57,229 nt of DNA. Origin: a virus. This document shows, one piece after another, positions 5,749 to 44,006 of this stretch. How positions within the stretch are numbered: the first letter of the stretch is position 1; every line of letters begins with the position of its first letter. The position numbers and the translations under genes were made by a program. The notes under the pieces are model-generated. The model was not told the DNA's origin. It did not search any database and was given only the letters and a program-made list of their open reading frames with translations. Where the stretch lies: positions 1 through 57,229 of IMG/VR virus record IMGVR_UViG_3300005471_000018, one strand, 5' to 3'.

Positions 5749-6768
5749 ATGACCGAAGAAAGGGTGCCCCCAGCTGAACTGGTGCTGCGGGCGGATCCCG
5801 TCGACACACCCATGCTGTACTTCGTGGTGTGGGCCGACGGCCCTCTCGCCCGTGACCTGCTGCAATGGAACCAGGAACCCGAACTGGGCAAGGCGGGCAC
5901 CAACCGCAAAGCCTCCGACATCAAGGTCGCCGAGTACTGCGCCACCATGCTCGCCGACGAATGGCAAACCAACCCGCACCCAGTGGTGTTCTCCGAAACC
6001 GGCTGGCAGGAAGACGGCCAGCAGCGGCTCAAGGCCTTGGTGAAGGCGTCGCTGACCCGGCCCAACATCCGGGTTCCGCTGACGATTTGCATCAACGCCC
6101 CCGACGAGTCGCGGATGGTGATGGACCTCGGCAAACGCCGCACCCCGTCGGACTTCCTGAAGATGGCTGGGCAGTCCAACACTGTCGTCCTCGCGTCGGC
6201 GCTCAAGATGCTTTACAACTACGACCACACCCCCCGCACCGGCCCTGAGGTGTGGCGTAAAACCCGGTGGACGCCGACGCTGCAGGCCGAAGTCCTTGCC
6301 GCGCACCCGATGATCCGTGAAGGGATCAAGGCAGCGACGCGGTCTAAACATCTGCTGACTGTCGTGCCCGGCGCGGTGCTGTGGTATCTGATCTACCGGG
6401 CGATGGAGGACGGCGGCGAGAAGGCCAACTGGTTCTTCCGTGGCCTGGAACGCGGCACCAACCCCGACGAGCTCGACGCCCGTTACACGTTCCGTGAGGG
6501 TTTGGCCCGCGCCTCTCTGGTGCACCGTGACTGGGATTCGGCTGACTACCTTGGTATCGGCATCAAAGCGTTCAACGCGTGGGCTGTCGGCGAGAACAAG
6601 TGGGTGTTCGGTCTGCGTAAGAACGAACGCTTCCCGAAGGTCATCTCGGCGGCGCAGTCGCTGCCGCTGCAGAAGATCCTCACCGAGGCGGAGCTCAAGG
6701 CCATCGGCGACGCGACGAAGGAGATCAAGACCGGCGACAAGCCGTACGTGAAGTTTGAGCAGCCGTAA
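5749..6768 (+). CDS. ParB-like DNA-binding protein
   Basis: A 339-aa protein. Around residues 55-130 it carries the pattern of phage ParB/Srx-like domains: a helix, W-x-x-N-P-x-P-V-V-F, then DGQQRL (the usual DGxHRL/DGQQRL signature), then M-D-L-G-K-R-R-T-P-S-D-F. The rest is helical. In actinophages such proteins are usually annotated as ParB-like nuclease-domain proteins; a role in DNA binding or regulation is inferred. The start at 5749 is supported by GAGAGGAGA upstream. Confidence 0.7.
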   Translation: MTEERVPPAELVLRADPVDTPMLYFVVWADGPLARDLLQWNQEPELGKAGTNRKASDIKVAEYCATMLADEWQTNPHPVVFSETGWQEDGQQRLKALVKASLTRPNIRVPLTICINAPDESRMVMDLGKRRTPSDFLKMAGQSNTVVLASALKMLYNYDHTPRTGPEVWRKTRWTPTLQAEVLAAHPMIREGIKAATRSKHLLTVVPGAVLWYLIYRAMEDGGEKANWFFRGLERGTNPDELDARYTFREGLARASLVHRDWDSADYLGIGIKAFNAWAVGENKWVFGLRKNERFPKVISAAQSLPLQKILTEAELKAIGDATKEIKTGDKPYVKFEQP

Positions 6769-6783
6769 CCAGCAAACGAACCT

Positions 6784-34463: not shown

Positions 34464-35198
34464 TTGAGACTCAATCAAATTCTTGCTGCGCTGAAGACGC
34501 ACAAGACAGACGCCAACACCGGCATCACCAGCGTGTACCACACGTTCCAGAAACCTGCACTGTTCGGTGGACATTCGCGCACCTACCAGCCCAAAGACGA
34601 AGAAGGCGAACAGCTTCCGTCCGAAAGCCAGCTGGTGCAGCAGAACGTCCCGGACCTTCTGAGCTCCCTGCGCCGCCACATGGAACGTCTGTTCGATGCT
34701 GTCGGCGCAGTCGACATGACCAACACCGTCGCCGCCGCCGACGTCGTCATGGATGGCACAGTCCTCCTGACGAACGTGCCGGTGCCGCATCTGCTGTTCC
34801 TGGAAAAGCAGCTCGCTGACCTGCACACCATGCTTGGCAAGCTGCCCACCCTGGACCCGGCGTTCACCTGGCACCGCAACAAGGACACGGACCTGAACCA
34901 AACCGACCCGGTCGAAACAATCCGCTCGAAGAAGATCAAGGAACACGTCGTTGCGGTCCCGCCGACCGACAAACACCCGGCGCAGGTGTATTTCAACGAA
35001 ACCGATGTGCCGGTGGGTACCTGGTCGACGGTGCGGCTGTCCGGCGCGGTCAGCGAGCAGAGCAAACGCAAGATGCTCGCCCGGGTCCTGCAACTGCAGG
35101 CAGCGGTCAAAGCGGCACGTGAAGCCGCCAACTCCGTCGAAGCGGTCACGTTCAACTCCGGGCAGATCCTGGGGTACGTGTTCGACGTCGACTGGTGA
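34464..35198 (+). CDS. DUF7873-family protein
   Basis: A 244-aa protein of a family widespread in phages and recognisable by S-R-T-Y-Q-P-K-D-E-E-G-E-Q-L-P, V-P-H-L-L-F-L-E-K-Q-L-A-D-L-H-T and K-H-P-A-Q-V. Biochemical role unknown. It starts at TTG 34464 behind AGGAGAGG and is the first gene of the tRNA operon. Confidence 0.8.
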   Translation: MRLNQILAALKTHKTDANTGITSVYHTFQKPALFGGHSRTYQPKDEEGEQLPSESQLVQQNVPDLLSSLRRHMERLFDAVGAVDMTNTVAAADVVMDGTVLLTNVPVPHLLFLEKQLADLHTMLGKLPTLDPAFTWHRNKDTDLNQTDPVETIRSKKIKEHVVAVPPTDKHPAQVYFNETDVPVGTWSTVRLSGAVSEQSKRKMLARVLQLQAAVKAAREAANSVEAVTFNSGQILGYVFDVDW

Positions 35199-35207
35199 CA
35201 TAGACTC

Positions 35208-35224
35208 CCCGGCCTTGCCGGGGT
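35208..35224 (+). terminator. Short GC hairpin after the DUF7873 gene
   Basis: A perfect 7-bp stem (35208-35214 with 35218-35224) and 3-nt loop lie 10 nt after the stop at 35198. It has no T-run, so it may stabilise or process the mRNA instead of terminating it. Confidence 0.4.
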
Positions 35225-35260
35225 GAGCACAAGCTGAAACTCAAGTTGACGGGTCAGATC

Positions 35261-35353
35261 TGACAGCTTCGCGGTGACAATGTCCAGGTTCGAGTCCTGG
35301 CCGGGGTTCGTGCCCCGGTAGCCCAATTGGTAGAGGCGGCTAGAAGCTACTCA
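35261..35353 (+). ncRNA. Permuted tRNA-like element A (possible YrlA-type Y RNA)
   Basis: Order of parts is reversed relative to a tRNA. First comes a T-arm (35284-35300, loop TTCGAGT), then the 3' acceptor strand (35301-35307), a 4-nt loop, the 5' acceptor strand (35312-35318, GCCCCGG), TA, and a D-arm (from 35321). Flanking sequences pair as a terminal stem: 35261-35263 and 35265-35270 with 35343-35348 and 35351-35353, leaving small bulges. No anticodon arm can be formed. The layout resembles YrlA bacterial Y RNAs, which mimic tRNA. Confidence 0.45.
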
Positions 35354-35402
35354 AGTTCTTGCTCCAATTTGAATTCAGCCCGCCGGAACCTACATCGAAG
35401 TC

Positions 35403-35513
35403 GTTACAGGCGAGGCACTTGTGGTTGGGGGTTCGATTCCCTCCCGCCCCTCCAAACTCGTGGGGCGGTAGCTCAACGGTAGAGCGGCATTGCATTCAAA
35501 CGTGACCTGTAAC
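35403..35513 (+). ncRNA. Permuted tRNA-like element B (possible YrlA-type Y RNA)
   Basis: T-arm 35427-35443 (loop TTCGATT), acceptor strands 35444-35450 and 35462-35468 (perfect 7 bp) closed by an 11-nt loop, TA, and D-arm 35471-35485. The ends pair: 35403-35410 with 35106-type complement at 35506-35513 (8 bp), then 35416-35418 with 35502-35504 and 35419-35421 with 35497-35499, separated by bulges. There is no anticodon arm. The terminal bulged stem is where Ro60-type proteins bind in Y RNAs; binding here is inference. Confidence 0.5.
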
Positions 35514-35543
35514 CCAGCGGCGGTAGGGGAAGAGCTACGGGTT

Positions 35544-35618
35544 TCTGACTTAGCCCAGTTGGAAAGGGCATCGGTCCTGAGGAACCGAAGATCGCAGGTT
35601 CGAATCCTGCAGTCAAAA
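35544..35618 (+). tRNA. tRNA-Leu(GAG), short variable loop
   Basis: Cloverleaf with a TCTGACT/AGTCAAA acceptor (one mismatch). The anticodon stem TCGGT/ACCGA is perfect only if the loop has 8 nt (CCTGAGGA); a 7-nt loop needs a mismatched pair. The variable loop is of the short type, unusual for Leu. Confidence 0.75.
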
Positions 35619-35628
35619 ACACTTTTAT

Positions 35629-35658
35629 CGGGGGGCCTCCAGGGTAGGAGGCTCCCCG
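35629..35658 (+). repeat. Inter-tRNA hairpin
   Basis: A 12-bp stem with one G-T pair (35629-35640 with 35647-35658) and 6-nt loop between two tRNA genes. See the other spacer hairpins of this array. Confidence 0.7.
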
Positions 35659-35665
35659 AGCCAAC

Positions 35666-35740
35666 CGGGATATGGCCAAATTTGGTAAGGCACCTGCTTT
35701 GGGAGCAGGCGATTTGGGAGTTCGAATCTCTCTATCCCGA
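35666..35740 (+). tRNA. tRNA-Pro(TGG)
   Basis: Perfect CGGGATA/TATCCCG acceptor, anticodon stem CCTGC/GCAGG with loop TTTGGGA, regular T-arm. Confidence 0.93.
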
Positions 35741-35779
35741 CTGACCTATGGACATCGCTGGTAGTGGTGCATCAGGGTC

Positions 35780-35890
35780 GCGGGCTGTCCACTCGTCGCG
35801 GGCAGCCCGCAATAGAGCTTCCTTTGGCTTTAGGGTCGCCGGAGGAGGGGGTAAGCCGTTTCCAGATTGTCGGCGCTCAAAACAATCTGG
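35780..35890 (+). repeat. Inter-tRNA spacer with two hairpins
   Basis: Two perfect inverted repeats fill the spacer: 35780-35787 with 35803-35810 (8 bp) and 35862-35870 with 35882-35890 (9 bp). No gene was found here. Confidence 0.7.
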
Positions 35891-35894
35891 GCTT

Positions 35895-35967
35895 GGGCTT
35901 GCAGCTCGATTGGTCGAGCACCGCTCTGGCAGGGCGGAGGTTCCGGGTTCGAACCCCGGCTGGTCCA
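35895..35967 (+). tRNA. tRNA-Ala(GGC)
   Basis: Anticodon loop CTGGCAG in stem CCGCT/GGCGG. The acceptor has the G3-U70 pair that defines alanine tRNAs and one mismatch. Confidence 0.85.
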
Positions 35968-35988
35968 CAAGGCGTGAAGGCCACTATG

Positions 35989-36042
35989 CCAGGGGATGGC
36001 TCATTCCTGTCCCCTGGAGATAACACCCACAAGAGAATGAGC
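35989..36042 (+). repeat. Inter-tRNA interleaved hairpins
   Basis: Two perfect 8-bp inverted repeats overlap so that only one can form at a time: 35989-35996 with 36010-36017, and 35999-36006 with 36035-36042. Confidence 0.65.
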
Positions 36043-36067
36043 ACGATGGGACGCCTTCCGCCCCCTT

Positions 36068-36140
36068 GGGGTTGTAGCTCAACTGGTAGAGCACCGGTCC
36101 TGCAAACCGGATGTTAGGGGTTCGAGTCCCCTCCTCTCCA
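36068..36140 (+). tRNA. tRNA-Ala(TGC)
   Basis: Anticodon loop CCTGCAA in stem CCGGT/ACCGG. G3-U70 is present. The acceptor stem has two mismatches, so the gene may be weakened. Confidence 0.8.
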
Positions 36141-36144
36141 CGAA

Positions 36145-36216
36145 GGTGGATACATGCGATCGGGATGTTAGGCACCGTGTCTGCAGCACAGTTCCGAATT
36201 CCGATGGGTATCCACC
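36145..36216 (+). other. tRNA-sized structured element
   Basis: The ends form a perfect 7-bp stem (36145-36151 with 36210-36216), an inner ATCGG/CCGAT pairing follows, and a small GTG/CAC hairpin with TCTGCAG lies in the middle. There is no canonical T-loop, so this is not a functional tRNA; it could be a decayed tRNA or a separate structured RNA. Confidence 0.4.
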
Positions 36217-36221
36217 CTTAA

Positions 36222-36293
36222 CCCCCTGAAGCTCAATGGAGGAGCGACCGCCTACGGAGCGGTAGGGTGCAGGTTCGACTCCTGTCAGGGGGA
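36222..36293 (+). tRNA. tRNA-Arg(ACG)
   Basis: CCCCCTG/CAGGGGG acceptor and anticodon stem ACCGC/GCGGT with loop CTACGGA. Confidence 0.93.
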
Positions 36294-36317
36294 CGATGTT
36301 CCTCGCTGGACATCACC

Positions 36318-36373
36318 GGAAGGCGGCGCGGTCCTCCACGCTCATCCAATGCGGTCACGCCGCGCCGCCTTCC
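36318..36373 (+). repeat. Long inter-tRNA hairpin
   Basis: A perfect 14-bp stem (36318-36331 with 36360-36373) closes a 28-nt loop and ends 6 nt before the next tRNA. Confidence 0.75.
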
Positions 36374-36379
36374 ACCTGT

Positions 36380-36452
36380 CCCCTGGTAGCTCAACGGACA
36401 GAGCGCCCGCCTTCTAAGCGGGTGGATGTAGGTTCGACTCCTGTCCAGGGGA
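36380..36452 (+). tRNA. tRNA-Arg(TCT)
   Basis: Perfect CCCCTGG/CCAGGGG acceptor, anticodon stem CCCGC/GCGGG with loop CTTCTAA. Confidence 0.94.
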
Positions 36453-36456
36453 TCAA

Positions 36457-36528
36457 CCCCTTGTAGCTCAACGGAAAGAGCGCCCTTCTCCTAAGAGGGA
36501 TGTCCAGGTTCGATTCCTGGTGGGGGGA
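36457..36528 (+). tRNA. tRNA-Arg(CCT)
   Basis: Acceptor CCCCTTG/TGGGGGG with wobble pairs, anticodon loop CTCCTAA, regular T-arm. It starts 4 nt after tRNA-Arg(TCT). Confidence 0.92.
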
Positions 36529-36551
36529 CGTGACGATAAGGGAGGACAACC

Positions 36552-36767
36552 ATGCGGCTACATGAGTCGTTGCACGTCGGAACGTTGAACATGGTGCATG
36601 AGATCGTCGTGCGGATGAATACCGACATGGAATGCGAACTGGACTGGGGTCAACTTTCCGAGCTTGACAAGGAAGCCAAACGTCTGCGCGAGGCCTACGA
36701 CCGGTGGGTATACCGCAAAGTGCAGATCGCGGAGGAGAAACTCCGCAAGCAACACGAGGGGGTGTGA
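36552..36767 (+). CDS. Small helical protein ending inside tRNA-Tyr
   Basis: A 71-aa charged, helical protein with an AAGGGAGG box before the ATG. Its last 8 nt, including the TGA stop, are also the first bases of tRNA-Tyr. Function unknown. Confidence 0.65.
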   Translation: MRLHESLHVGTLNMVHEIVVRMNTDMECELDWGQLSELDKEAKRLREAYDRWVYRKVQIAEEKLRKQHEGV

Positions 36768-36838
36768 GTCACCTGGTGGTGAAGCCTGACTGTAAATCAG
36801 GTGCTTACGCACGGCAGGTTCGATCCCTGCCACACCCA
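36760..36838 (+). tRNA. tRNA-Tyr(GTA)
   Basis: Perfect GGGTGTG/CACACCC acceptor, anticodon loop CTGTAAA, long variable arm as expected for bacterial Tyr tRNA. Confidence 0.93.
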
Positions 36839-36896
36839 CGGGGTCGAAGGGTTGCCACTAACTGGACGACTCCCCACTAAAACAAGAAGTGGATGC

Positions 36897-36927
36897 GGGG
36901 CCAGTGACGCCGGATACAACTGGCCCC
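36897..36927 (+). repeat. Inter-tRNA hairpin
   Basis: A perfect 9-bp stem (36897-36905 with 36919-36927) ends 7 nt before tRNA-Lys(TTT). Confidence 0.7.
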
Positions 36928-36934
36928 TACAAAT

Positions 36935-37008
36935 GCCTCCGTAGCTCAGCTGGTAGCAGCAGCGCACTTTTAATGCGCGGGTCGCAGGTTCGAACCCTGC
37001 CGGGGGTA
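36935..37008 (+). tRNA. tRNA-Lys(TTT)
   Basis: Anticodon stem GCGCA/TGCGC with loop CTTTTAA; acceptor GCCTCCG/CGGGGGT. The following spacer (37009-37195) holds no gene that I can support. Confidence 0.9.
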
Positions 37009-37195
37009 CGCGTGAGATGAACGTGAGTACGGACAGGCGGTCGCAGCACCGACGGGTGCCTAACCCCGCACGTAGGGGCGAAGACCAATAAAAGGCGGGA
37101 ACGCGGCAGAAGCGTGCACGTCAGGTAGCCGACTAGCGTCAAAAGCAGCAAAGCCCTAGATATGTGTCAGGTTCATCTCCGTTCCAACGCTCCGA

Positions 37196-37267
37196 GTCTC
37201 TGAAGCTCAATGGAGGAGCGTCGGTTTCCGAAGCCGAAGGTTGCCAGTTCGACTCTGGTCAGGGACA
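37196..37267 (+). tRNA. tRNA-Arg(CCG)
   Basis: Acceptor GTCTCTG/CAGGGAC, anticodon loop TTCCGAA. The bases after the discriminator read CCA (37268-37270), perhaps by chance. Confidence 0.9.
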
Positions 37268-37273
37268 CCAACT

Positions 37274-37888
37274 ATGCCAAGACAACCCGGACAACACGCA
37301 CCCGAAGACTTGTGTATCCACTGCAGACGCCGCAAGAAACACAAAAGCGGCGACCACTGCCCCTCATGCAAAGCCGTCCTCGTCGCTGATGGTGTCATCA
37401 AACCACGCAAAGGCGTGCCGTTCATGACCCGCTACAAGCAGTACCTCACACGGTTTGAAAAAGGCATGACCCAACAGGAAATCGCTAAAGACCTGGGTTT
37501 GGACATCAGCTACGTCGAAAACATTGCCACCCGGGCACGCAACATCGGCCTGTACGTGCCGACCAGGCCGCCCGGCATAGCAAACAAAATCACCGAACAC
37601 GGCGGCGGCACCACCGGGGTCCGTGGCTGTAACTGTGGAAAGTGTGTGGCCACACGCCGCGAATACAAGGCGCTGTGGAAGAAGAACACCGCCGAACGCA
37701 TCGCCCGAGGCGAACAGGAACCCAAAACAAACCATGGGGAGGGTTCGCGGGGTGTGCAGGGCTGCAAATGTGATCTGTGTGTCCAATGCCGCCGGGCGTA
37801 CCGCCGGGCGTGGGAAGCCGATGTGAAAGCCAACGGTAAACGGCGCAGCCGCAATGCCTCTGTAGCTCAGTCTGGTAGCAGCAGCTGA
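37274..37888 (+). CDS. HTH protein with paired Cys clusters, ending inside tRNA-Lys
   Basis: A 204-aa protein. C-I-H-C ... C-P-S-C near the N-terminus forms a zinc ribbon. A sigma-like HTH follows (M-T-Q-Q-E-I-A-K-D-L-G-L-D-I-S-Y-V, about residues 68-85). The C-terminal part has two similar repeats, G-x-R-G-C-N-C-G-K-C and G-V-Q-G-C-K-C-D-L-C, each followed by R-R-x-Y. The final 33 nt are read from tRNA-Lys(CTT). DNA or RNA binding is likely. Confidence 0.68.
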   Translation: MPRQPGQHAPEDLCIHCRRRKKHKSGDHCPSCKAVLVADGVIKPRKGVPFMTRYKQYLTRFEKGMTQQEIAKDLGLDISYVENIATRARNIGLYVPTRPPGIANKITEHGGGTTGVRGCNCGKCVATRREYKALWKKNTAERIARGEQEPKTNHGEGSRGVQGCKCDLCVQCRRAYRRAWEADVKANGKRRSRNASVAQSGSSS

Positions 37889-37930
37889 CTCTTAATCAGC
37901 GGGTCGCAGGTTCAAATCCTGCCAGGGGCA
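37856..37930 (+). tRNA. tRNA-Lys(CTT)
   Basis: Perfect GCCTCTG/CAGGGGC acceptor and loop CTCTTAA. Its first 33 nt encode the C-terminus and stop codon of the upstream protein. Confidence 0.92.
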
Positions 37931-38081
37931 CAGGTGCCAGAAACCTCAAATCCGATAGACGGTGCTAGGCGGAAGAGCAACTGCTTGCGGTTGTGCCCAA
38001 CTCCCAAAGCATTCGTGACACCTCGGGCAAACTGGTGGAGTCCATGGGAGCGTGGGGACGTTAAGCTGCGCGCTCCGCCTT

Positions 38082-38156
38082 GCCTCTGTAGCTCAGGCTG
38101 GTCAGAGCGGCTGCCTTGTAAGCAGCGGGTCGGCGGTTCGAATCCGTCCGGAGGCT
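38082..38156 (+). tRNA. tRNA-Thr(TGT)
   Basis: Acceptor GCCTCTG/CGGAGGC, anticodon stem GCTGC/GCAGC with loop CTTGTAA. Confidence 0.93.
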
Positions 38157-38530
38157 CTCTTAGCCCTATAGTCCCTTGCGCGTTGGGCGTGCGCCGAACG
38201 ACATGTGTCGCAACGGCAGCGATGCTTGTTATACATGCCTTTGGTCCCGTGACCAGGAATCTTGTATGCGTTGGTTTTGGCGAGATGGCATGCACGACAA
38301 AGGACCTGACATTTTGCGAGCTCAACCAGGCGTACATCTTCTGCGTAAGACCAAAGATGACTTGGGTTAGTTGCCTTTGTTTGTGGATCGATATGATCGA
38401 TCTCTAACTCTTCCCAGGAACCACATTGTCGACATAGTCCATTGGCATTTAGCCATTCATCACGCCTGCGATTGCGCCAGATTCTTTGATATGTGCGCTG
38501 GTCATCCCGGTTCGCGTATGACATAGCCAC
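38102..38530 (-). CDS. HNH endonuclease, antisense between two tRNA genes
   Basis: A 142-aa protein with C-R-Q-C-G, E-I-D-H-I-D-P, N-x-S-H-L-W and C-Q-V-L-C-R-A-C-H, the zinc-stabilised HNH nuclease pattern of homing-type enzymes. The start codon GTG 38530 uses a ribosome binding site that lies in the reverse complement of the tRNA-Phe acceptor. The C-terminal ~18 residues are antisense to tRNA-Thr. A selfish insertion into the array is likely. Confidence 0.8.
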   Translation of the reverse strand: MAMSYANRDDQRTYQRIWRNRRRDEWLNANGLCRQCGSWEELEIDHIDPQTKATNPSHLWSYAEDVRLVELAKCQVLCRACHLAKTNAYKIPGHGTKGMYNKHRCRCDTCRSAHAQRARDYRAKRASGRIRTADPLLTRQPL

Positions 38531-38537
38531 ATTGTAC

Positions 38538-38609
38538 GGCTCCTTAGCTTAGTTGGCAGAGCATCCGTCTGAAACACGGAGGACATACGTTCGAGTCGTG
38601 TAGGAGCCA
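38538..38609 (+). tRNA. tRNA-Phe(GAA)
   Basis: Perfect GGCTCCT/AGGAGCC acceptor and loop CTGAAAC. Confidence 0.93.
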
Positions 38610-38635
38610 CGGTCCTGGCTTGGGACTGCGCAAAG

Positions 38636-38662
38636 CCTCGACGGCCCGCTAAGCCGTCGAGG
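38636..38662 (+). repeat. Inter-tRNA hairpin
   Basis: A perfect 10-bp stem (38636-38645 with 38653-38662), 7-nt loop, ending 6 nt before tRNA-Val(TAC). Confidence 0.75.
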
Positions 38663-38668
38663 TGATAT

Positions 38669-38739
38669 GTCCTCTTAGCTCAACGGGAGAGCACCTGGTT
38701 TACACCCAGGGGATGGCAGTTCGATCCTGTCAGGGGATA
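38669..38739 (+). tRNA. tRNA-Val(TAC)
   Basis: Acceptor GTCCTCT/AGGGGAT, anticodon stem CCTGG/CCAGG with loop TTTACAC. The spacer after it (38740-38890) contains several further stem-loops and no gene. Confidence 0.92.
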
Positions 38740-38890
38740 CAACACCCGGGGCTAGAAGGGGGTGTTTCCGCCGCCGCAGTATTGGAACAGCTGCGGCGGT
38801 TTGAGTGACGACAGTGCGAGGGGTTCGCAGTCACGGCGCATCATGTTCCCGTGCCCGGTGCTGGGGGAACGGTTGCCGGGCACGTTCTAA

Positions 38891-38962
38891 GGTCTTGTAG
38901 CTCAGTGGGAGAGCGCCACCATGACAGGGTGGAGGCCGGTAGTTCGATCCTACCTAAGACCA
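38891..38962 (+). tRNA. tRNA-Val(GAC)
   Basis: Acceptor GGTCTTG/TAAGACC, anticodon stem CCACC/GGTGG with loop ATGACAG. Confidence 0.92.
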
Positions 38963-38963
38963 C

Positions 38964-39242
38964 ATGCCAGCCACAGTCGAGGTGATGCCTCGCGATATGC
39001 AAAAGTTTGACTGGAACGGGCCAGCGTTCCATTGGGTGTGCCACAGATGCCAACGCGCTGGGGCGATAGCCACCGAATCGGATGCGCGTAAGCAGGCCGC
39101 TGACCATAACGGGGTAAAGCACGGGTGCAGCTGCGAATGGTATTCGATCTTCGAGGGGGAAGCTGGCGGCACCTCTTACCACATCTTCGAGTACAACCGA
39201 CGCTGCCCGAAACACGGCAAGCCGCGCCACGTGGCCAAGTAG
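38964..39242 (+). CDS. Small zinc-finger-like protein between tRNA genes
   Basis: A 92-aa protein starting 2 nt after tRNA-Val and ending 18 nt inside tRNA-Ile(TAT). C-H-R-C, H-G-C-S-C and C-P-K-H suggest metal binding. No upstream ribosome binding site is visible because the upstream bases are tRNA. Function unknown. Confidence 0.62.
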   Translation: MPATVEVMPRDMQKFDWNGPAFHWVCHRCQRAGAIATESDARKQAADHNGVKHGCSCEWYSIFEGEAGGTSYHIFEYNRRCPKHGKPRHVAK

Positions 39243-39299
39243 GTGAAGGCACCCGCCTTATATGCGGGGGACGCGCAGGTTCGAACCCTGCCGTGGCGA
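39225..39299 (+). tRNA. tRNA-Ile(TAT)
   Basis: Perfect CGCCACG/CGTGGCG acceptor, anticodon stem CCCGC/GCGGG with loop CTTATAT. Confidence 0.92.
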
Positions 39300-39319
39300 C
39301 GCAGAGAGGGGAGAAACTG

Positions 39320-40135
39320 TTGAACCTGAACCAGGAAGGCCTGTCCAAACTGGACAGCATGACCAAATATCCTTCCATCGGCACCTACCACGCCCTTGAC
39401 CCTGCCACCGGAATGTTGCAGGAGGACAAGGTGACCTCGTTTGTGGGGACGGTGGTGGTCACCGAAAAAATCGACGGATGCAACGCCCGGATCATCTTGC
39501 TGCCCAACGGAACCTACATCCTCGGATCCCGCGACACACTGCTGTACGCGCAAGGTGACCTGATCCAAAACCCTGCACACGGCATCGTCGACACGTTGAA
39601 AAACATCGGGGAACGTATCGCCGGGGCGGAACGCAACAACATCATGGTGATTTTCGGCGAGGTGTACGGCATCGGCAACGGGCCGTGGGGTAACTACACC
39701 AGCCGTAAGGAGGTCGGCGGGTTCCGGGTGTTCGATGTGATGACCATCGACAACTGGCCGGAGCTGATGGGTTCCGAGCGGGCCAGGTTGGCGTTGTGGC
39801 GTGAGTCCGGCGGGCAACAGTTTTACGCCGAGCCTGGCCTGACCAGGTTCGCCCGTGAGGCCGGTTTGGAGCTGGTGCCTAGGTTGCTGGTGGACCACCG
39901 TGAACAGCTGCCGACGACGTTGCAGGACACCCTGGATTGGATGTCGGAGATCCTTCCGGAGTCGCAGGCGAAGTTGTCGCCGGGCGGCAGCGGCGCACCG
40001 GAGGGTGTGGTGATCCGTTCGTGGGCCAGGTCGATCATTGTGAAGGCCAGGTTCAAGGACTATCGGAGCACGCTGCGCCGTTCCGCACAGAACGTGTTGC
40101 GGGAGATGGCTGCAGCAGATAAGGCCCCTGCATAG
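39320..40135 (+). CDS. RNA ligase (ATP-dependent nucleotidyltransferase)
   Basis: A 271-aa protein with covalent nucleotidyltransferase motifs: motif I K-I-D-G (Lys50 is the adenylated residue), motif III F-G-E-V-Y-G, motif IV E-G-V-V-I-R and motif V I-V-K-A-R-F. The overall pattern fits phage RNA ligases more than DNA ligases. TTG 39320 follows AGAGGGGAG. Lying inside the tRNA array, it could reseal tRNAs cut by host anticodon nucleases, as T4 Rnl1 does. Confidence 0.82.
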   Translation: MNLNQEGLSKLDSMTKYPSIGTYHALDPATGMLQEDKVTSFVGTVVVTEKIDGCNARIILLPNGTYILGSRDTLLYAQGDLIQNPAHGIVDTLKNIGERIAGAERNNIMVIFGEVYGIGNGPWGNYTSRKEVGGFRVFDVMTIDNWPELMGSERARLALWRESGGQQFYAEPGLTRFAREAGLELVPRLLVDHREQLPTTLQDTLDWMSEILPESQAKLSPGGSGAPEGVVIRSWARSIIVKARFKDYRSTLRRSAQNVLREMAAADKAPA

Positions 40136-40158
40136 ACCGCCGCAACGACCTATGCAGG
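40127..40158 (+). terminator. Hairpin overlapping the RNA ligase stop
   Basis: A perfect 9-bp stem (40127-40135 with 40150-40158), whose 5' arm contains the TAG stop. No T-run; may protect or process the transcript. Confidence 0.5.
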
Positions 40159-40196
40159 ATGAGGCAGGCCTAGTGGTGCAGCTGGGCCTGTCGCCT

Positions 40197-40271
40197 CGCC
40201 ATGGAGCACGGTCTGGTTTGTGCATCCGTCTGATAAGCGGAAGGTCCCAGGTTCAAATCCTGGCTTGGCGA
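40197..40271 (+). tRNA. tRNA-Ile(GAT)
   Basis: Acceptor CGCCATG/CTTGGCG with one mismatch, D-stem GCAC/GTGC, loop CTGATAA, T-loop TTCAAAT. Confidence 0.88.
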
Positions 40272-40353
40272 CGAGGGAGCCGGGGCTGGTTCTAGATTGG
40301 GCAGCCCCCATGAGGCGGGGAGGCGTGATGGGTTTGACTCCGCGAGAATTGAT

Positions 40354-40427
40354 GGCGCGTTGGTGTAGTTGGTTAGCATAGGAGTCCTTCAAACTTCAGG
40401 TCACGGGTTCGAGCCCCGTACGCGCTA
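40354..40427 (+). tRNA. tRNA-Glu(TTC)
   Basis: Acceptor GGCGCGT/ACGCGCT, loop CCTTCAA, regular T-arm. Confidence 0.92.
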
Positions 40428-40456
40428 CAACACCCAAACAGGTAGGGAGCACAGCA

Positions 40457-40741
40457 GTGCGAGAAAACGTGTGGTTCAAGTCGTCACGCTCTAACGGCGG
40501 CGATTGCGTCGAGGTGCAGTGGCACACGGCGGCTGGCTGCTATGACAGCAACTGTGTCGAGGTGGGATTTCAGACAGCTTCGGCGTGCGACGACAACGGC
40601 TGCGTCGGTGTGCACCTAGGTGAGGATGAAATTCTTCTCCGCGACACGAAAGACGGCGGGAAGGGGCCGGTGCTGAAGTTCACCCCCAGCGAGTGGGAAG
40701 CGTTCGTCGGCGGTATCAAGCTCGGCGAGTTTGACTTCTAG
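40457..40741 (+). CDS. DUF397-domain protein
   Basis: A 94-aa protein: W-F-K-S-S-R-S-N-G-G-D-C-V-E-V at the N-terminus, L-R-D-T-K-D-G and F-T-P-S-E-W-E-A-F at the C-terminus, the DUF397 pattern. The domain is essentially confined to Actinobacteria, where it is usually paired with an XRE regulator. The middle holds two extra short Cys repeats (C-V-E-V-G-F; C-V-G-V-H). It supports an actinobacterial host. Confidence 0.82.
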   Translation: MRENVWFKSSRSNGGDCVEVQWHTAAGCYDSNCVEVGFQTASACDDNGCVGVHLGEDEILLRDTKDGGKGPVLKFTPSEWEAFVGGIKLGEFDF

Positions 40742-40762
40742 CAGCAATGAGAGGAGAGCACG

Positions 40763-41122
40763 GTGTACGCAGAGGCGCAGGTTCGGGCGGGGATCGCGTT
40801 CCTAGATGAACGCGCCGACCACGAGTGGCGGCAGGAGATCAACCTGGAGACGTTGGACATGCGCGACGAGTATGCGTGTGTGTTCGGGCAGCTGTTCGGC
40901 GACTACACGACAGCGCAGAACCAGTTCGGGCTCACCGCGATTGAGGCGTCCGGGTTGGGGTTCTACCGCTGCGACGGGTTCTGGTGGCCGGTGCAGGAAC
41001 ACGAGACGGTCGGCGAGGGTGGTTTCGACGCTGAAGGGAACTGGTACATGTCGCCGTGGGAGTACCGCTACGAGCTGCTGACGGCCACATGGAAGGAACT
41101 TTTGCAGCCGGTGGCGGTGTGA
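40763..41122 (+). CDS. Unknown actinophage-type protein
   Basis: A 119-aa protein from GTG 40763 with A-G-I-A-F-L-D-E and L-E-T-L-D-M near the N-terminus, a layout seen in other actinophage proteins. An AGGAGAG box precedes it. Function unknown. Confidence 0.62.
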   Translation: MYAEAQVRAGIAFLDERADHEWRQEINLETLDMRDEYACVFGQLFGDYTTAQNQFGLTAIEASGLGFYRCDGFWWPVQEHETVGEGGFDAEGNWYMSPWEYRYELLTATWKELLQPVAV

Positions 41123-41199
41123 CCAAGGGTCTGTTCTGGTTTGTGGTGTTGGTCGTTGTCGTCCTTGCGGCGACAGCGGCCAATCTGCTAGGAATGTAA
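41119..41199 (+). CDS. 26-aa membrane peptide
   Basis: A hydrophobic peptide (F-W-F-V-V-L-V-V-V-V-L-A-A-T) starting by GTGA overlap with the previous gene and ending 10 nt before tRNA-Asp. Confidence 0.5.
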   Translation: MTKGLFWFVVLVVVVLAATAANLLGM

Positions 41200-41209
41200 G
41201 GTAGTTTAG

Positions 41210-41282
41210 GGACCGTTAGCTCAGGGGTCAGAGCATCGGACTGTCGATCCGAAGGCCACGGGTTCGAGACCCGTACGGTTCG
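41210..41282 (+). tRNA. tRNA-Asp(GTC)
   Basis: Acceptor GGACCGT/ACGGTTC, loop CTGTCGA, discriminator G as expected for Asp. An AAGGTAGTTT motif lies just upstream (41198-41207). Confidence 0.93.
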
Positions 41283-41284
41283 CT

Positions 41285-41377
41285 GAAGGCGGGGCAAGAC
41301 AACACCTTCCAGGTTGTCCCCCTTTGTCACAACAACCATGAGGTCGCCACCTAGCGGTTGAAAAGTGCCCCGCCTTC
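41285..41377 (+). repeat. Spacer closed by a 12-bp stem
   Basis: The tRNA-Asp to tRNA-Gly spacer is bounded by a perfect 12-bp inverted repeat (41285-41296 with 41366-41377), so the spacer would fold into one arm with an inner stem. Confidence 0.75.
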
Positions 41378-41380
41378 CTA

Positions 41381-41451
41381 GCGTCACTGGTGTAGTGGTC
41401 GCACGTGACCTTGCCATGGTCACGGAGCCGGTTCGATTCCGGCGTGACGCT
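41381..41451 (+). tRNA. tRNA-Gly(GCC)
   Basis: Perfect GCGTCAC/GTGACGC acceptor, anticodon stem TGACC/GGTCA with loop TTGCCAT. Confidence 0.93.
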
Positions 41452-41531
41452 CGTTTCCTTCTGTTCTTCCCCTTGGACCGGGCGGGCAGGAGAAACCCTC
41501 GGAGCCTGGCTAGAGACAGGCACCGAGGCAT

Positions 41532-41602
41532 GCGTGATTGGTGTAGCGGTAACACGCCTTCCTTCCAAGTAGGAACCACCAGTTCGATTCTGGTATCACG
41601 CT
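41532..41602 (+). tRNA. tRNA-Gly(TCC)
   Basis: Perfect GCGTGAT/ATCACGC acceptor, loop CTTCCAA; one mismatch in the anticodon stem. Confidence 0.9.
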
Positions 41603-41607
41603 CTGCT

Positions 41608-41689
41608 CCACCCTCCGGTCCAGGGCAGCTCGGGGCACACCACCTCAGAGCAGTCAGACATACGTATGCACCTGTACCCCGGAGGGTGG
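41608..41689 (+). repeat. Spacer closed by an 11-bp stem
   Basis: Perfect inverted repeat 41608-41618 with 41679-41689 encloses the whole spacer between tRNA-Gly and tRNA-Leu. Confidence 0.75.
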
Positions 41690-41695
41690 GGTCAA

Positions 41696-41769
41696 GCCCG
41701 AGTAGCCTAACTGGCAGCGGCGTCTGACTTAGGATCAGAAGGTTGGGGGTTCGAATCCCTCCTCGGGTA
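41696..41769 (+). tRNA. tRNA-Leu(TAG), short variable loop
   Basis: Acceptor GCCCGAG/CTCGGGT, anticodon stem TCTGA/TCAGA with loop CTTAGGA. Only 5 nt separate the anticodon and T-arms, although bacterial Leu tRNAs normally have a long variable arm. Confidence 0.85.
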
Positions 41770-41770
41770 C

Positions 41771-42334
41771 ATGGCAACTTGGTTCACTGCAGATCTACAT
41801 TTCGGCCACGAACGAATCATTGAACTGTGCAACCGGCCGTTCTCCAATGTGGACGAGATGAATACCGAACTGATCGACCGGTGGAACAGCCTGGTTGATC
41901 AGGGCGACAGCGTCTATGTTCTTGGCGATGTGGCCATGGGGAAGATCGCCGACACCTTGCCGCTTGTCGAACAGCTTCGCGGCACCAAATATCTGGTGCC
42001 AGGCAACCATGACCGGTGCTGGCCCGGACACAAGAAAGTCCGCCCCGCCGACATCGAAGCCTACAAACATGTTGGTTTCAAAATCCTTGACCCGCAACAT
42101 GTTTACGGCCGCTGGCTGCTGTGCCACTTCCCGCAGACAGGCGACAGCCACGACCGTGACCGTTACGCCGAACACCGGCCGACACTGACCGGCTACAAGG
42201 CGATCATCCACGGCCACGTCCACAACCAATGGAGAATCAACGCCCGGCAAATCAACGTCGGTGTAGATGTGTGGGGTTACGCCCCTGTCCACCTCAACCA
42301 GCTGCGGGAACTGATTGACTCTTTGTCCGGGTAG
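41771..42334 (+). CDS. Calcineurin-like metallophosphoesterase
   Basis: A 187-aa phosphoesterase with all metal-binding motifs: D-L-H-F-G-H (Asp8, His10), L-G-D-V, P-G-N-H-D, C-H-F-P and G-H-V-H. Family members cleave phosphomono- or diesters of nucleotides and nucleic acids. It starts 1 nt after tRNA-Leu(TAG) and ends 10 nt inside tRNA-Leu(CAA). Together with the RNA ligase it could heal RNA ends, but the substrate is unknown. Confidence 0.85.
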   Translation: MATWFTADLHFGHERIIELCNRPFSNVDEMNTELIDRWNSLVDQGDSVYVLGDVAMGKIADTLPLVEQLRGTKYLVPGNHDRCWPGHKKVRPADIEAYKHVGFKILDPQHVYGRWLLCHFPQTGDSHDRDRYAEHRPTLTGYKAIIHGHVHNQWRINARQINVGVDVWGYAPVHLNQLRELIDSLSG

Positions 42335-42397
42335 CCCAACGGTAGAGGCCGCGCTCCCAAAAAGCGTGGGTTGCCGGTTCGAATCCGGCTCCGGATA
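42325..42397 (+). tRNA. tRNA-Leu(CAA), C33 variant
   Basis: Acceptor GTCCGGG/TCCGGAT, anticodon stem GCGCT/AGCGT, loop CCCAAAA. Base 33 is C instead of the near-universal U, and the variable loop is short. The D-arm matches the other Leu genes. Confidence 0.75.
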
Positions 42398-42398
42398 C

Positions 42399-43415
42399 GT
42401 GATCGAAACACTGAAACAAAACACTATCAACCACATCGGCTTAGTCATCGACGGGTCATCATCGATGGCGCACCTATCCCGCGAAGTCATCAAAGTCGCC
42501 GACGCCCAAATCGCCTACCTAGCAAAACGATCCCAAGAACTCAAACAGGAAACCCGAGTCTCGGTCTACATCTTCAACCACATCGTCCGCTGCGTCATCT
42601 TCGACATGGACGTGCTGCGGCTGCCGTCGATCGCGCAGCTGTACGGCACCAGCGGACGCACCGCCCTGATCGACGCCGCCTTAAAATCCCAGCAGGATTT
42701 GGAAACCACGTCGACGATCTACGGTGACCACTCGTTCCTCACCTTCATCCTCACCGACGGCGAAGAGAACGAGTCGAAACACCCCGCCGGGATGCTCACC
42801 AAATATTTGCAGGCACAAGGCGACAACTGGACCGTCGCCGTCCTGGTACCCAACGCCACCGGCAAGTTCGAGGCGAAACGGTTCGGGTTCCCGGCGGACA
42901 ACATCGCGATCTGGGACGCCACAACAGTTGCCGGGGTCACCGAGGTCGGCGAAACGATCCGTAAGGCCACCGACAACTACATGATGGCCCGGTCGACGGG
43001 CACATTCCGGGGGACGCGTTCGCTGTTCTCCATGGGCAACGCCACCTTGAACAGCACGGCGGTGTTGCAGGCCGATCTGAAACCGTTGCGGCCAGGACAG
43101 TTCGTCCTCTTCGATGTGGATCAGCCGTGGGCGATCCGGGAGTGGGTAGAGTCGCGGGGGCTGCCCTACAACATGGGTTCGGCGTTCTATCAACTGACGA
43201 AGTCGGAGCTGATCCAGGCCCGCAAGGACATCCTGGTGCGCAACAAGAAAACTGGGCTGGTGTATTCGGGGGCGAACGCTCGTGCAATTGTCGGCCTGCC
43301 CGACGACGAGATCCGTGTCCGGCCCGAACACAATCCCGACTTCGATGTGTTTGTGCAGTCGACGTCGGTGAACCGTAAACTGGTTCCTGGTACCAAACTG
43401 TTGGTACTGCGGTAA
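42399..43415 (+). CDS. von Willebrand factor A-domain protein
   Basis: A 338-aa protein starting one base after tRNA-Leu(CAA). Residues about 10-190 are a vWA domain with a complete MIDAS: D18-x-S20-x-S22, Thr in S-G-R-T-A-L, Asp in L-T-D-G-E-E-N. The C-terminal ~130 residues are unassigned. vWA domains mediate metal-dependent protein contacts; Ro60 also ends in one, but this protein has no room for the RNA-binding TROVE domain. Confidence 0.78.
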   Translation: MIETLKQNTINHIGLVIDGSSSMAHLSREVIKVADAQIAYLAKRSQELKQETRVSVYIFNHIVRCVIFDMDVLRLPSIAQLYGTSGRTALIDAALKSQQDLETTSTIYGDHSFLTFILTDGEENESKHPAGMLTKYLQAQGDNWTVAVLVPNATGKFEAKRFGFPADNIAIWDATTVAGVTEVGETIRKATDNYMMARSTGTFRGTRSLFSMGNATLNSTAVLQADLKPLRPGQFVLFDVDQPWAIREWVESRGLPYNMGSAFYQLTKSELIQARKDILVRNKKTGLVYSGANARAIVGLPDDEIRVRPEHNPDFDVFVQSTSVNRKLVPGTKLLVLR

Positions 43416-43422
43416 ATCGAGT

Positions 43423-43496
43423 GTGTGTGTAGCTTAATTGGAAGAGCGGCCCGCCTCCAAAGCGGGAGGGCGCAGGTTCGATTCCTGCTGCATGCG
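43423..43496 (+). tRNA. tRNA-Trp(CCA)
   Basis: Anticodon stem CCCGC/GCGGG with loop CTCCAAA, discriminator G. The acceptor is built largely from wobble pairs. Confidence 0.88.
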
Positions 43497-43567
43497 CGCG
43501 GCCCCCCATTGGGGCACTGGTGCATGGCGGAGCCACCCGTTGAAGCCGGGATAAACACCGCCCCTAT

Positions 43568-43640
43568 TCCTCCATGGCGCAATGGGTAGCGCAACGCACT
43601 GTTAATGCGTGGGTTCTAGGTTCGAGTCCTGGTGGAGGAG
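43568..43640 (+). tRNA. tRNA-Asn(GTT)
   Basis: Perfect TCCTCCA/TGGAGGA acceptor, loop CTGTTAA, discriminator G. Confidence 0.94.
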
Positions 43641-43792
43641 CTGGGGAAAGCATCGGGAATAGCGGACCTGGTCTGTATGTGATGCGCACAACTGGGCATA
43701 GGTTGGATCCGCCTTTGCCACTGCTACCGGCTGCTAGCGCCGTATGCAATATAAAGGTTGTTGAGAGCTGGGTTCGAGTCCCAGTCCCCTAC
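43641..43792 (+). other. tRNA-like remnant or interrupted tRNA
   Basis: A clear T-arm (43768-43784, loop TTCGAGT) with 3' acceptor strand TCCCCTA (43785-43791) has no good 5' half beside it. A possible 5' part near 43642-43670 gives only a 5-bp acceptor match and a GACCT/AGGTT anticodon stem about 75 nt apart. It may be a decayed tRNA or one carrying an insert. It could not be assigned an amino acid. Confidence 0.35.
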
Positions 43793-43795
43793 CCA

Positions 43796-43866
43796 CTCGG
43801 GTTCGGCTAATGGCAGGCCGCCGGATTTTGGTTCCGGTAATTGGAGTTCGAATCTCTGCCCCGAGG
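43796..43866 (+). tRNA. tRNA-Gln(TTG)
   Basis: Acceptor CTCGGGT/CCCCGAG with one mismatch, anticodon stem CCGGA/TCCGG with loop TTTTGGT. Confidence 0.87.
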
Positions 43867-43878
43867 CAAAAGCCAATA

Positions 43879-44006
43879 GGGAAGTTAGTACTGGTCGGGC
43901 GAGAACGCTTGCAGAACGCTACGAAGGATGGCTGGCCGCAGGAAGAGCTATATGGCGGCCGAAAACTTCCCAGGCCCACAGACGCCGACAAGCACGTCTG
44001 TGGGCC
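43879..44006 (+). repeat. Inter-tRNA spacer with nested hairpins
   Basis: Perfect inverted repeats 43879-43886 with 43964-43971 (8 bp) and 43973-43984 with 43995-44006 (12 bp, 10-nt loop). The second ends 4 nt before tRNA-Gln(CTG). No gene in the spacer. Confidence 0.75.

What the first reader, a model, noticed from the sequence alone, without database searches (positions are those of the whole stretch)
35629..44006. Nearly every inter-tRNA spacer is a different long hairpin
Seen: perfect or near-perfect stems at 35629/35658 (12 bp), 35862/35890 (9), 36318/36373 (14), 36897/36927 (9), 38636/38662 (10), 41285/41377 (12), 41608/41689 (11), 43973/44006 (12) and others, mostly ending 4-7 nt before the next tRNA. 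The sequences differ, so structure and not sequence is conserved. Inference: RNase III-type processing sites or insulators that stop misfolding between tRNAs. They lack T-runs.
Basis: partly seen in the sequence, partly recalled or inferred. Interest (0 to 1): 0.7.

Follow-up and report, generated by a model that had tools for sequence, protein, structure and literature searches.

The report
Folded spacers between phage tRNA genes
In a group of uncultured phages the RNA between neighbouring tRNA genes is repeatedly a different but selected hairpin that stops 3-7 bases before the next tRNA, most likely keeping the tRNAs from misfolding so they can be cut out; the first of these hairpins belongs instead to an apparently undescribed, widespread phage RNA built partly from tRNA halves in reversed order.

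Summary
The stems are real, at the stated coordinates, and not chance. Twelve of 17 non-coding spacers of 45-186 nt fold more stably than shuffles (z -2.3 to -6.7). In seven related phage contigs, 59% of 81 spacers end in a helix of at least 9 bp that stops 3-8 nt before the next tRNA, against 7.8% of shuffles. Stems covary between relatives, and G.T outnumbers A.C, so the + strand RNA is what is conserved. "Nearly every spacer" is too strong: other gaps are 1-5 nt or hold ORFs.

Best reading: selected structural insulators of a multi-tRNA precursor that leave a short free leader for RNase P. In folding calculations native spacers protect both flanking acceptor stems better than shuffles. RNase III cutting cannot be tested here.

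Hairpin 1 (35628-35659) is something else: the terminal hairpin of a conserved RNA downstream of the DUF7873 gene, with UNA repeats every 6 nt, two circularly permuted tRNA-like modules (found in 69 of 78 DUF7873 loci, 4 of 3,646 control windows) and a fixed-loop hairpin. Rfam 15 gives it only weak, sub-threshold matches (YrlA, tmRNA). The upstream "tRNA-???" is probably part of it.

The parts
35628..35659 (+). 13-bp hairpin with AGGGTA loop (hairpin 1 of the finding); terminal hairpin of the DUF7873-linked RNA
   Evidence: (5 of 13 pairs changed on both sides, 0/500 shuffles)
35862..35890 (+). 9-bp spacer hairpin, 4 nt before tRNA-Ala(GGC)
35989..36017 (+). 11-bp (G.T allowed) hairpin inside the Ala-Ala spacer; the spacer is also closed by an outer stem
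36145..36216 (+). 9-bp stem spanning the Ala-Arg spacer, 5 nt before tRNA-Arg(ACG); not in the finding's list
36318..36373 (+). 14-bp stem, 5 nt before tRNA-Arg(TCT)
   Evidence: z -6.7
36897..36927 (+). 9-bp stem, 7 nt before tRNA-Lys(TTT); covaries in L090
38636..38662 (+). 10-bp stem, 6 nt before tRNA-Val(TAC)
38850..38884 (+). stem 6 nt before tRNA-Val(GAC); part of a conserved 150-nt spacer RNA
41285..41377 (+). 12-bp stem closing the whole Asp-Gly spacer, 3 nt before tRNA-Gly(GCC)
   Evidence: 4 of 12 pairs changed on both sides, 100% paired in 3 phages
41497..41528 (+). 6+5-bp hairpin, 3 nt before tRNA-Gly(TCC)
41605..41692 (+). 14-bp (G.T allowed) stem closing the Gly-Leu spacer, 3 nt before tRNA-Leu(TAG)
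43973..44006 (+). 12-bp stem, 4 nt before tRNA-Gln(CTG)
34464..35198 (+). gene of a DUF7873 protein (Pfam PF25283), first gene of the + strand tRNA region
   Evidence: E 8e-81
35235..35249 (+). UNA repeats every 6 nt (TGA-AAC-TCA-AGT-TGA) in the 5' part of the DUF7873-linked RNA
35284..35337 (+). permuted tRNA-like module 1: T-arm, 3' acceptor CCGGGGT 35301-35307, 5' acceptor GCCCCGG 35312-35318, D-arm
35350..35373 (+). second conserved block of the DUF7873-linked RNA (TCAAGTTCTTGCTCCAATTTGAA)
35391..35513 (+). permuted tRNA-like module 2 (YrlA-like): flanking helix GTTACAGG/CCTGTAAC, T-arm from 35427, 3' acceptor CCGCCCC 35444-35450, 5' acceptor GGGGCGG 35462-35468, D-arm
   Evidence: (YrlA 39.2 bits, below cut-off 69)
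35543..35620 (+). ARAGORN 'tRNA-???': tRNA-like cloverleaf without a usable anticodon, at a place where relatives show varying 'anticodons'; probably part of the DUF7873-linked RNA, not a decoding tRNA

Best explanation
The long non-coding spacers of this phage's tRNA array are selected RNA structures in a multi-tRNA transcript. Each structured spacer folds on itself and leaves only 3-7 unpaired bases before the next tRNA. Shown by computation: non-random folding, fixed position, conserved pairing with changing sequence, action at the level of the + strand RNA, and protection of the flanking acceptor stems in folding calculations. Inferred: the hairpins act as insulators and punctuation. They stop neighbouring tRNAs and leaders from mispairing and present a short free leader to RNase P; the tRNA is then finished at its 3' end by host enzymes, as most of these tRNA genes do not encode CCA. 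The longer stems may in addition be cut by RNase III. Hairpin 1 (35628-35659) is an exception: it is the terminal hairpin of a separate conserved RNA linked to the DUF7873 gene.
For: Stem and folding-energy significance in the window. In seven related contigs 59% of 81 spacers end in a helix of at least 9 bp stopping 3-8 nt before the next tRNA versus 7.8% in shuffles; weaker in two wider groups, 29% and 27% versus about 7%. Spacers are either up to about 15 nt or about 36 nt and more, with few between. Covariation: 75 cells with both sides changed and still paired, 87 with one side changed, 61 broken, over 15 homologous spacer sets; in terminal helices without hairpin 1, changed pairs stay paired in 75% against 23-35% for slid controls; Asp-Gly stem with 4 pairs changed on both sides. 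G.T 35 versus A.C 16 inside stems ending 2-8 nt before a tRNA, p 0.0055, as expected for the + strand RNA. Native spacers raise acceptor-stem pairing from 0.25 to 0.46 and from 0.27 to 0.44. Literature: stable structure in the leader near the cleavage site affects RNase P rate, and pairing of the leader with the 3' ACCA counteracts cleavage (PMC10731613). No promoter-like site on the + strand and no terminators at the stems. Most tRNAs in the array lack CCA.
Against: Five of the 17 spacers of 45-186 nt show no unusual structure. Only 15% of tRNAs that follow a gap over 200 nt have such a hairpin, against about 6% expected, so a hairpin is not needed for every tRNA. Any self-contained fold would give the insulation result, so one search is consistent with the mechanism and does not prove that insulation was the selected trait. 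Some spacers keep inner sequence, which hints at additional, specific roles. No expression or RNA-end data exist.
Confidence: 0.6

Rival explanations
1. The stems are primarily RNase III processing sites: RNase III cuts the double-stranded spacer and so separates the tRNAs before RNase P and 3' enzymes act.
For: Long, often perfect stems of 9-16 bp in most spacers, conserved by covariation.
Against: Median helix is only 10-11 bp, about one turn and short for efficient RNase III cutting (established knowledge, not tested). A cut inside the stem does not explain why the 3' end of the stem sits so sharply 3-6 nt before the tRNA. Neighbouring tRNAs 1-15 nt apart do without it.
Confidence: 0.2
2. 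The hairpins mainly keep the long, partly untranslated transcript free of unstructured RNA and so protect it from Rho termination or RNase E entry; tRNAs, ORFs and hairpins together leave little naked RNA.
For: Spacers are very short, translated or folded. RNase E direct entry needs unpaired segments next to tRNAs in E. coli (PMC3985628).
Against: Does not predict the fixed 3-7 nt distance to the next tRNA. Several spacers of 70-186 nt are not unusually structured.
Confidence: 0.12
3. The spacers are independent small RNAs (regulators or sponges) released when the tRNAs are cut out, and the hairpin is what stabilises them.
For: Some homologous spacers keep inner sequence and structure, e.g. 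Val-Val 38741-38890, Asp-Gly with 16 identical nt, Lys-Arg 37010-37195 nearly identical in L090. Spacer-derived sponges of tRNA transcripts are known in E. coli (general knowledge).
Against: Most spacers differ completely between relatives, and no Rfam family other than tRNA reaches its cut-off in the window.
Confidence: 0.08

Closest known systems
Polycistronic tRNA precursors of bacteria (e.g. E. coli argX-hisR-leuT-proM, valVW)
   Same: Several tRNAs in a row on one transcript, to be separated by endonucleases; leader and spacer structure is known to influence RNase P and RNase E.
   Different: Here most spacers of about 40-150 nt are closed hairpins with a fixed position and covarying stems; the E. 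coli RNase E sites need unpaired spacer segments.
tRNA arrays of phages T5 and T4
   Same: Dense tRNA arrays interrupted by small ORFs; T5 also has stable RNAs of unknown function in the array.
   Different: In T4 and T5 hardly any gaps fall in the 35-200 nt class and the hairpin pattern is not seen there (0 of 3); numbers are small.
YrlA (bacterial Y RNA-like RNA, RF02553), for the DUF7873-linked RNA
   Same: Module 2 matches the whole YrlA model with T-arm, D-arm and flanking stem (39.2 bits in the window; 38.2 bits in GodonK).
   Different: Below the family cut-off of 69. Two modules about 150 nt apart, UNA repeats, fixed-loop terminal hairpin and a DUF7873 neighbour are not features of YrlA.
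Permuted (two-piece) tmRNA, RF04321, for the DUF7873-linked RNA
   Same: Order T-arm, acceptor, often CCA, linker, acceptor, D-arm.
   Different: Only a partial weak match (19.3 bits versus cut-off 47 in GodonK); two modules; ARAGORN finds no tmRNA in the window.

Membership tests
Intrinsic terminator | G+C-rich stem directly followed by a T-run | tested here: not met
   No terminator-like hit coincides with a spacer stem; 9 found versus 7.4 in shuffles
RNase III processing site | Double-stranded RNA helix of sufficient length | tested here: inconclusive
   Median 10-11 bp, longest about 16 bp
RNase III processing site | RNase III-dependent RNA ends in the stem | not testable with these tools
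   No RNA data
Conserved RNA structure | Compensatory changes in stems between relatives | tested here: met
Conserved RNA structure | Strand bias of wobble pairs (G.T more than A.C) | tested here: met
   35 versus 16, p 0.0055
YrlA / Y RNA (module 2 of the DUF7873-linked RNA) | Rfam score above the family cut-off | tested here: not met
   39.2 and 38.2 bits versus 69
YrlA / Y RNA (module 2 of the DUF7873-linked RNA) | tRNA-like module between the arms of a flanking stem | tested here: met
   Helix of at least 7 bp in 88% versus 58% with swapped partners
YrlA / Y RNA (module 2 of the DUF7873-linked RNA) | Partner protein Ro60/Rsr | tested here: inconclusive
   The vWA-like protein 42399-43415 has no Pfam match and no match to Ro60 chains by sequence; the rest of the genome was not searched
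Permuted tmRNA (DUF7873-linked RNA) | Recognised tmRNA with tag reading frame | tested here: not met
   ARAGORN finds none; only partial sub-threshold matches
DUF7873 (PF25283) | Pfam score above gathering threshold | tested here: met
   271.7 bits versus 27

The most novel reading that the evidence does not exclude
Hairpin 1 and the upstream 'tRNA-???' are parts of an undescribed phage ribonucleoprotein: a DUF7873 protein and, directly downstream of its gene, an RNA of some 300-500 nt with UNA repeats every 6 nt (several protein subunits binding 6 nt each), two circularly permuted tRNA-like modules that often encode CCA, and a terminal hairpin with a fixed loop (AGGGTA or CGGATATG) on a freely varying stem. 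At least the permuted modules occur in phages of Gordonia, Arthrobacter, Rhodococcus, Pseudanabaena, Rhizobium and Klebsiella.
Probability: 0.7. Interest if true: 0.85.

Novelty: new variant of a known kind. Interest (0 to 1): 0.6.

Why it matters
It gives a testable layout rule for very long phage tRNA arrays (tRNAs abut, follow an ORF, or are separated by a closed hairpin with a 3-7 nt leader) and a clear prediction for RNase P processing. The by-product may matter more: a conserved, apparently unannotated RNA made of reversed tRNA halves next to a gene family of unknown function. It is present in phages that are in culture (GodonK, Racecar, NiceHouse), so it can be tested directly.

Tried and rejected
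Permuted tRNA genes for translation at 35270-35515: considered first, then replaced by the DUF7873-linked RNA reading, since what would be the anticodon region is a long insert with conserved blocks and the modules form a linked pair in most loci; the alternative of ordinary split tRNAs fails because the 5' strand of module 1 never pairs fully with the 3' strand of module 2 (0 of 29). Terminators and promoters: no support. DNA-level element: wobble bias favours RNA. Rfam families for the spacer hairpins: none above cut-off. Mobile hairpin with shared sequence: an all-against-all comparison of spacers shows almost only homologous positions plus the hairpin-1 family. DUF7873 fold: good AlphaFold model (pLDDT 91.7) but no convincing structural relative. 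Foldseek's top ranks are Cas7 subunits of Cascade at E 0.009 with TM-score about 0.12, and the VIA-align second look gave at best Z 6.7 to TolC at rmsd 12.5 A; that Cas7 also binds RNA in 6-nt steps (general knowledge) makes this a lead only. Searches with the RNA ligase and the vWA-like protein brought one and no relatives. Literature: no paper on DUF7873 in the library, none found on hairpins between phage tRNAs.
Full report
What the window is. The 57,229-base window is an uncultured virus record. Capsid, portal, terminase and head-protease genes lie on the - strand, the tRNA genes and a primase on the + strand. ARAGORN lists 32 tRNA genes, all on the + strand between 35,543 and 47,837. No deposited phage is close at DNA level; the portal protein resembles those of phages of actinobacteria at about 30% identity or less. 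IMG/VR holds relatives with the same tRNA order: L002/L090, L004/L092, L001/L015, L010/L109, L012/L019, L013/L131. The contig of L001 looks error-rich (frameshifts, short homopolymers), so its small deletions were not used as evidence.

Check of the observation. The named stems exist where stated and most are longer than dinucleotide-preserving shuffles give. Of 17 non-coding spacers of 45-186 nt, twelve have folding energies at z -2.3 or lower; those at 37010, 37932, 40273, 43498 and 43642 do not. Three gaps are 1-5 nt, and the 11 gaps over 200 nt mostly hold ORFs. So the statement is right for about two thirds of the spacers that could show it, not for nearly every one.

It is a family feature. 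In seven related contigs, 81 spacers of 35-200 nt have mean z -2.5, and 59% end in a helix of at least 9 bp whose last base lies 3-8 nt before the next tRNA, against 7.8% of shuffled spacers; the distance peaks at 3-6 nt. More distant phages found by their terminase or DUF7873 gene show the same to a lesser degree (29% and 27% versus about 7%). Cultured phages vary: NiceHouse has 7 of 23 such leaders against 1.4 expected, GodonK and Racecar few. T4 and T5 have almost no gaps of this class. Spacer lengths are split: up to about 15 nt, or from about 36 nt, with few between.

Structure is conserved, on the RNA strand. Aligned homologous spacers carry many compensatory changes (75 cells with both sides changed over 15 sets). 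The Asp-Gly stem is fully paired in three phages with 4 of 12 pairs changed on both sides. Pooled over six terminal helices, without hairpin 1, changed pairs stay paired in 75% of cells against 23-35% when the partner is slid by 1-3 columns. Inside stems next to tRNAs G.T mismatches outnumber A.C 35 to 16, p 0.0055; a DNA-level element should show no difference. Some spacers also keep inner sequence, such as 16 identical bases in the Asp-Gly spacer and the nearly invariant Lys-Arg spacer 37010-37195, so a few may have extra functions.

Mechanism. Folding two tRNAs with their native spacer gives acceptor-stem pairing probabilities of 0.46 and 0.44; with shuffled spacers 0.25 and 0.27 (63 pairs, p 3e-5 and 4e-4). 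This is what an insulator should do, though any self-contained fold would do it. The sharp 3-7 nt tail fits a leader that RNase P can hold: leader structure near the cleavage site changes RNase P rates, and leader pairing with the 3' end counteracts cleavage (PMC10731613). The tRNAs mostly lack an encoded CCA, so their 3' ends need a nuclease and CCA addition (established knowledge). RNase III remains possible for the longer stems but cannot be tested here; the helices are about one turn long.

Hairpin 1 is different. Its AGGGTA loop recurs on unrelated stems in other phages, a few hundred bases downstream of one gene, which in the window is 34464-35198 and belongs to Pfam DUF7873. Aligning the stretch after this gene in 15 contigs shows a conserved RNA, also present in cultured phages. 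From 5' to 3' in the window: UNA triplets every 6 nt (35235-35249); module 1, a tRNA with its halves in reversed order (T-arm, 3' acceptor strand, linker, 5' acceptor strand, D-arm; 35284-35337); a second block (35350-35373); module 2 of the same kind, closed by an outer helix and weakly matching YrlA (35391-35513); the tRNA-like cloverleaf that ARAGORN calls tRNA-??? (35543-35620); and hairpin 1 (35628-35659).

Statistics for this RNA. A permuted module with a 7-of-7 paired acceptor (the scan criterion) lies within 700 nt downstream in 69 of 78 non-redundant DUF7873 loci, but in 4 of 3,646 control windows of the same contigs; there are 69 different acceptor sequences, CCA follows the discriminator in 50 of about 98 modules, and two modules are 143-178 nt apart. 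The non-permuted pairing is never complete (0 of 29). UNA-UNA distances of 6 nt occur 306 times against 90 expected, with peaks near 12 and 18-19. A terminal hairpin with a GGGTA loop core (18 loci) or CGGATATG (17 loci) is found in 35 of 78 loci; in 1,213 control windows such hairpins occur once. The only Rfam 15 matches to it are weak and sub-threshold: YrlA (39.2 and 38.2 bits, cut-off 69) and partial tRNA or tmRNA hits. The scan patterns were chosen after seeing some of these sequences, so the counts for the first 15 to 27 contigs are not independent of the pattern; the remaining loci are.

What is shown and what is inferred. Shown by computation: existence, non-randomness, position, covariation, strand, insulation in silico, and the association of the permuted-module RNA with DUF7873. 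Inferred: the role in RNase P processing, any RNase III cutting, that the 'tRNA-???' does not decode, and that DUF7873 binds the RNA.

Noticed in passing
window 34464-35660: DUF7873 gene followed by a conserved RNA with UNA repeats every 6 nt, two circularly permuted tRNA-like modules, a tRNA-like cloverleaf and a fixed-loop hairpin; permuted modules in 69 of 78 DUF7873 loci, including cultured phages of several bacterial phyla.
   Followed up: yes
window 39293-40135: RNA ligase (Pfam RNA_ligase, E 7e-17) inside the tRNA array; Arthrobacter phage Racecar also has an RNA ligase in its array.
   Followed up: partly
window 42399-43415: Protein with a DxSxS motif like vWA domains (IDGSSSM near its start), no Pfam or PDB match; matches PHROG 26613 of unknown function.
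   Followed up: partly
window 37274-37867 with tRNA 37856; 38964-39236 with tRNA 39225; 41771-42334 with tRNA 42325: ORFs in the array end inside the next tRNA gene, taking their stop codon from the 5' part of the tRNA itself.
   Followed up: no
window 37010-37195: Lys-Arg spacer of 186 nt nearly identical in L090 although it folds no better than shuffles; may be a specific RNA or hold a short ORF.
   Followed up: no
window 38741-38890: Val-Val spacer with conserved motifs in related phages (GTTTCCG, GATTGGAAC, GAGTGAC, GGGGTTCGC, AGTCACG, TGTTCCCGTGCCC).
   Followed up: partly
window 43758-43795: Orphan T-arm (GAGCTGGGTTCGAGTCCCAGTCCCC) in the Asn-Gln spacer, conserved in L090; possibly a further tRNA-like element or a tRNA remnant.
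   Followed up: no
L090 Arg-Arg spacer 6619-6777: Contains an apparent tRNA missed by ARAGORN (D-arm, anticodon-like stem and T-arm).
   Followed up: no
L106:7133, L108:4057, L111:3667, L117:7179: Glu-Glu spacer of about 130 nt that starts with a D-arm-like GGGCTGTAGCTCAAAGTAGAGC and has a covarying structure; perhaps a tRNA-like RNA of its own.
   Followed up: no
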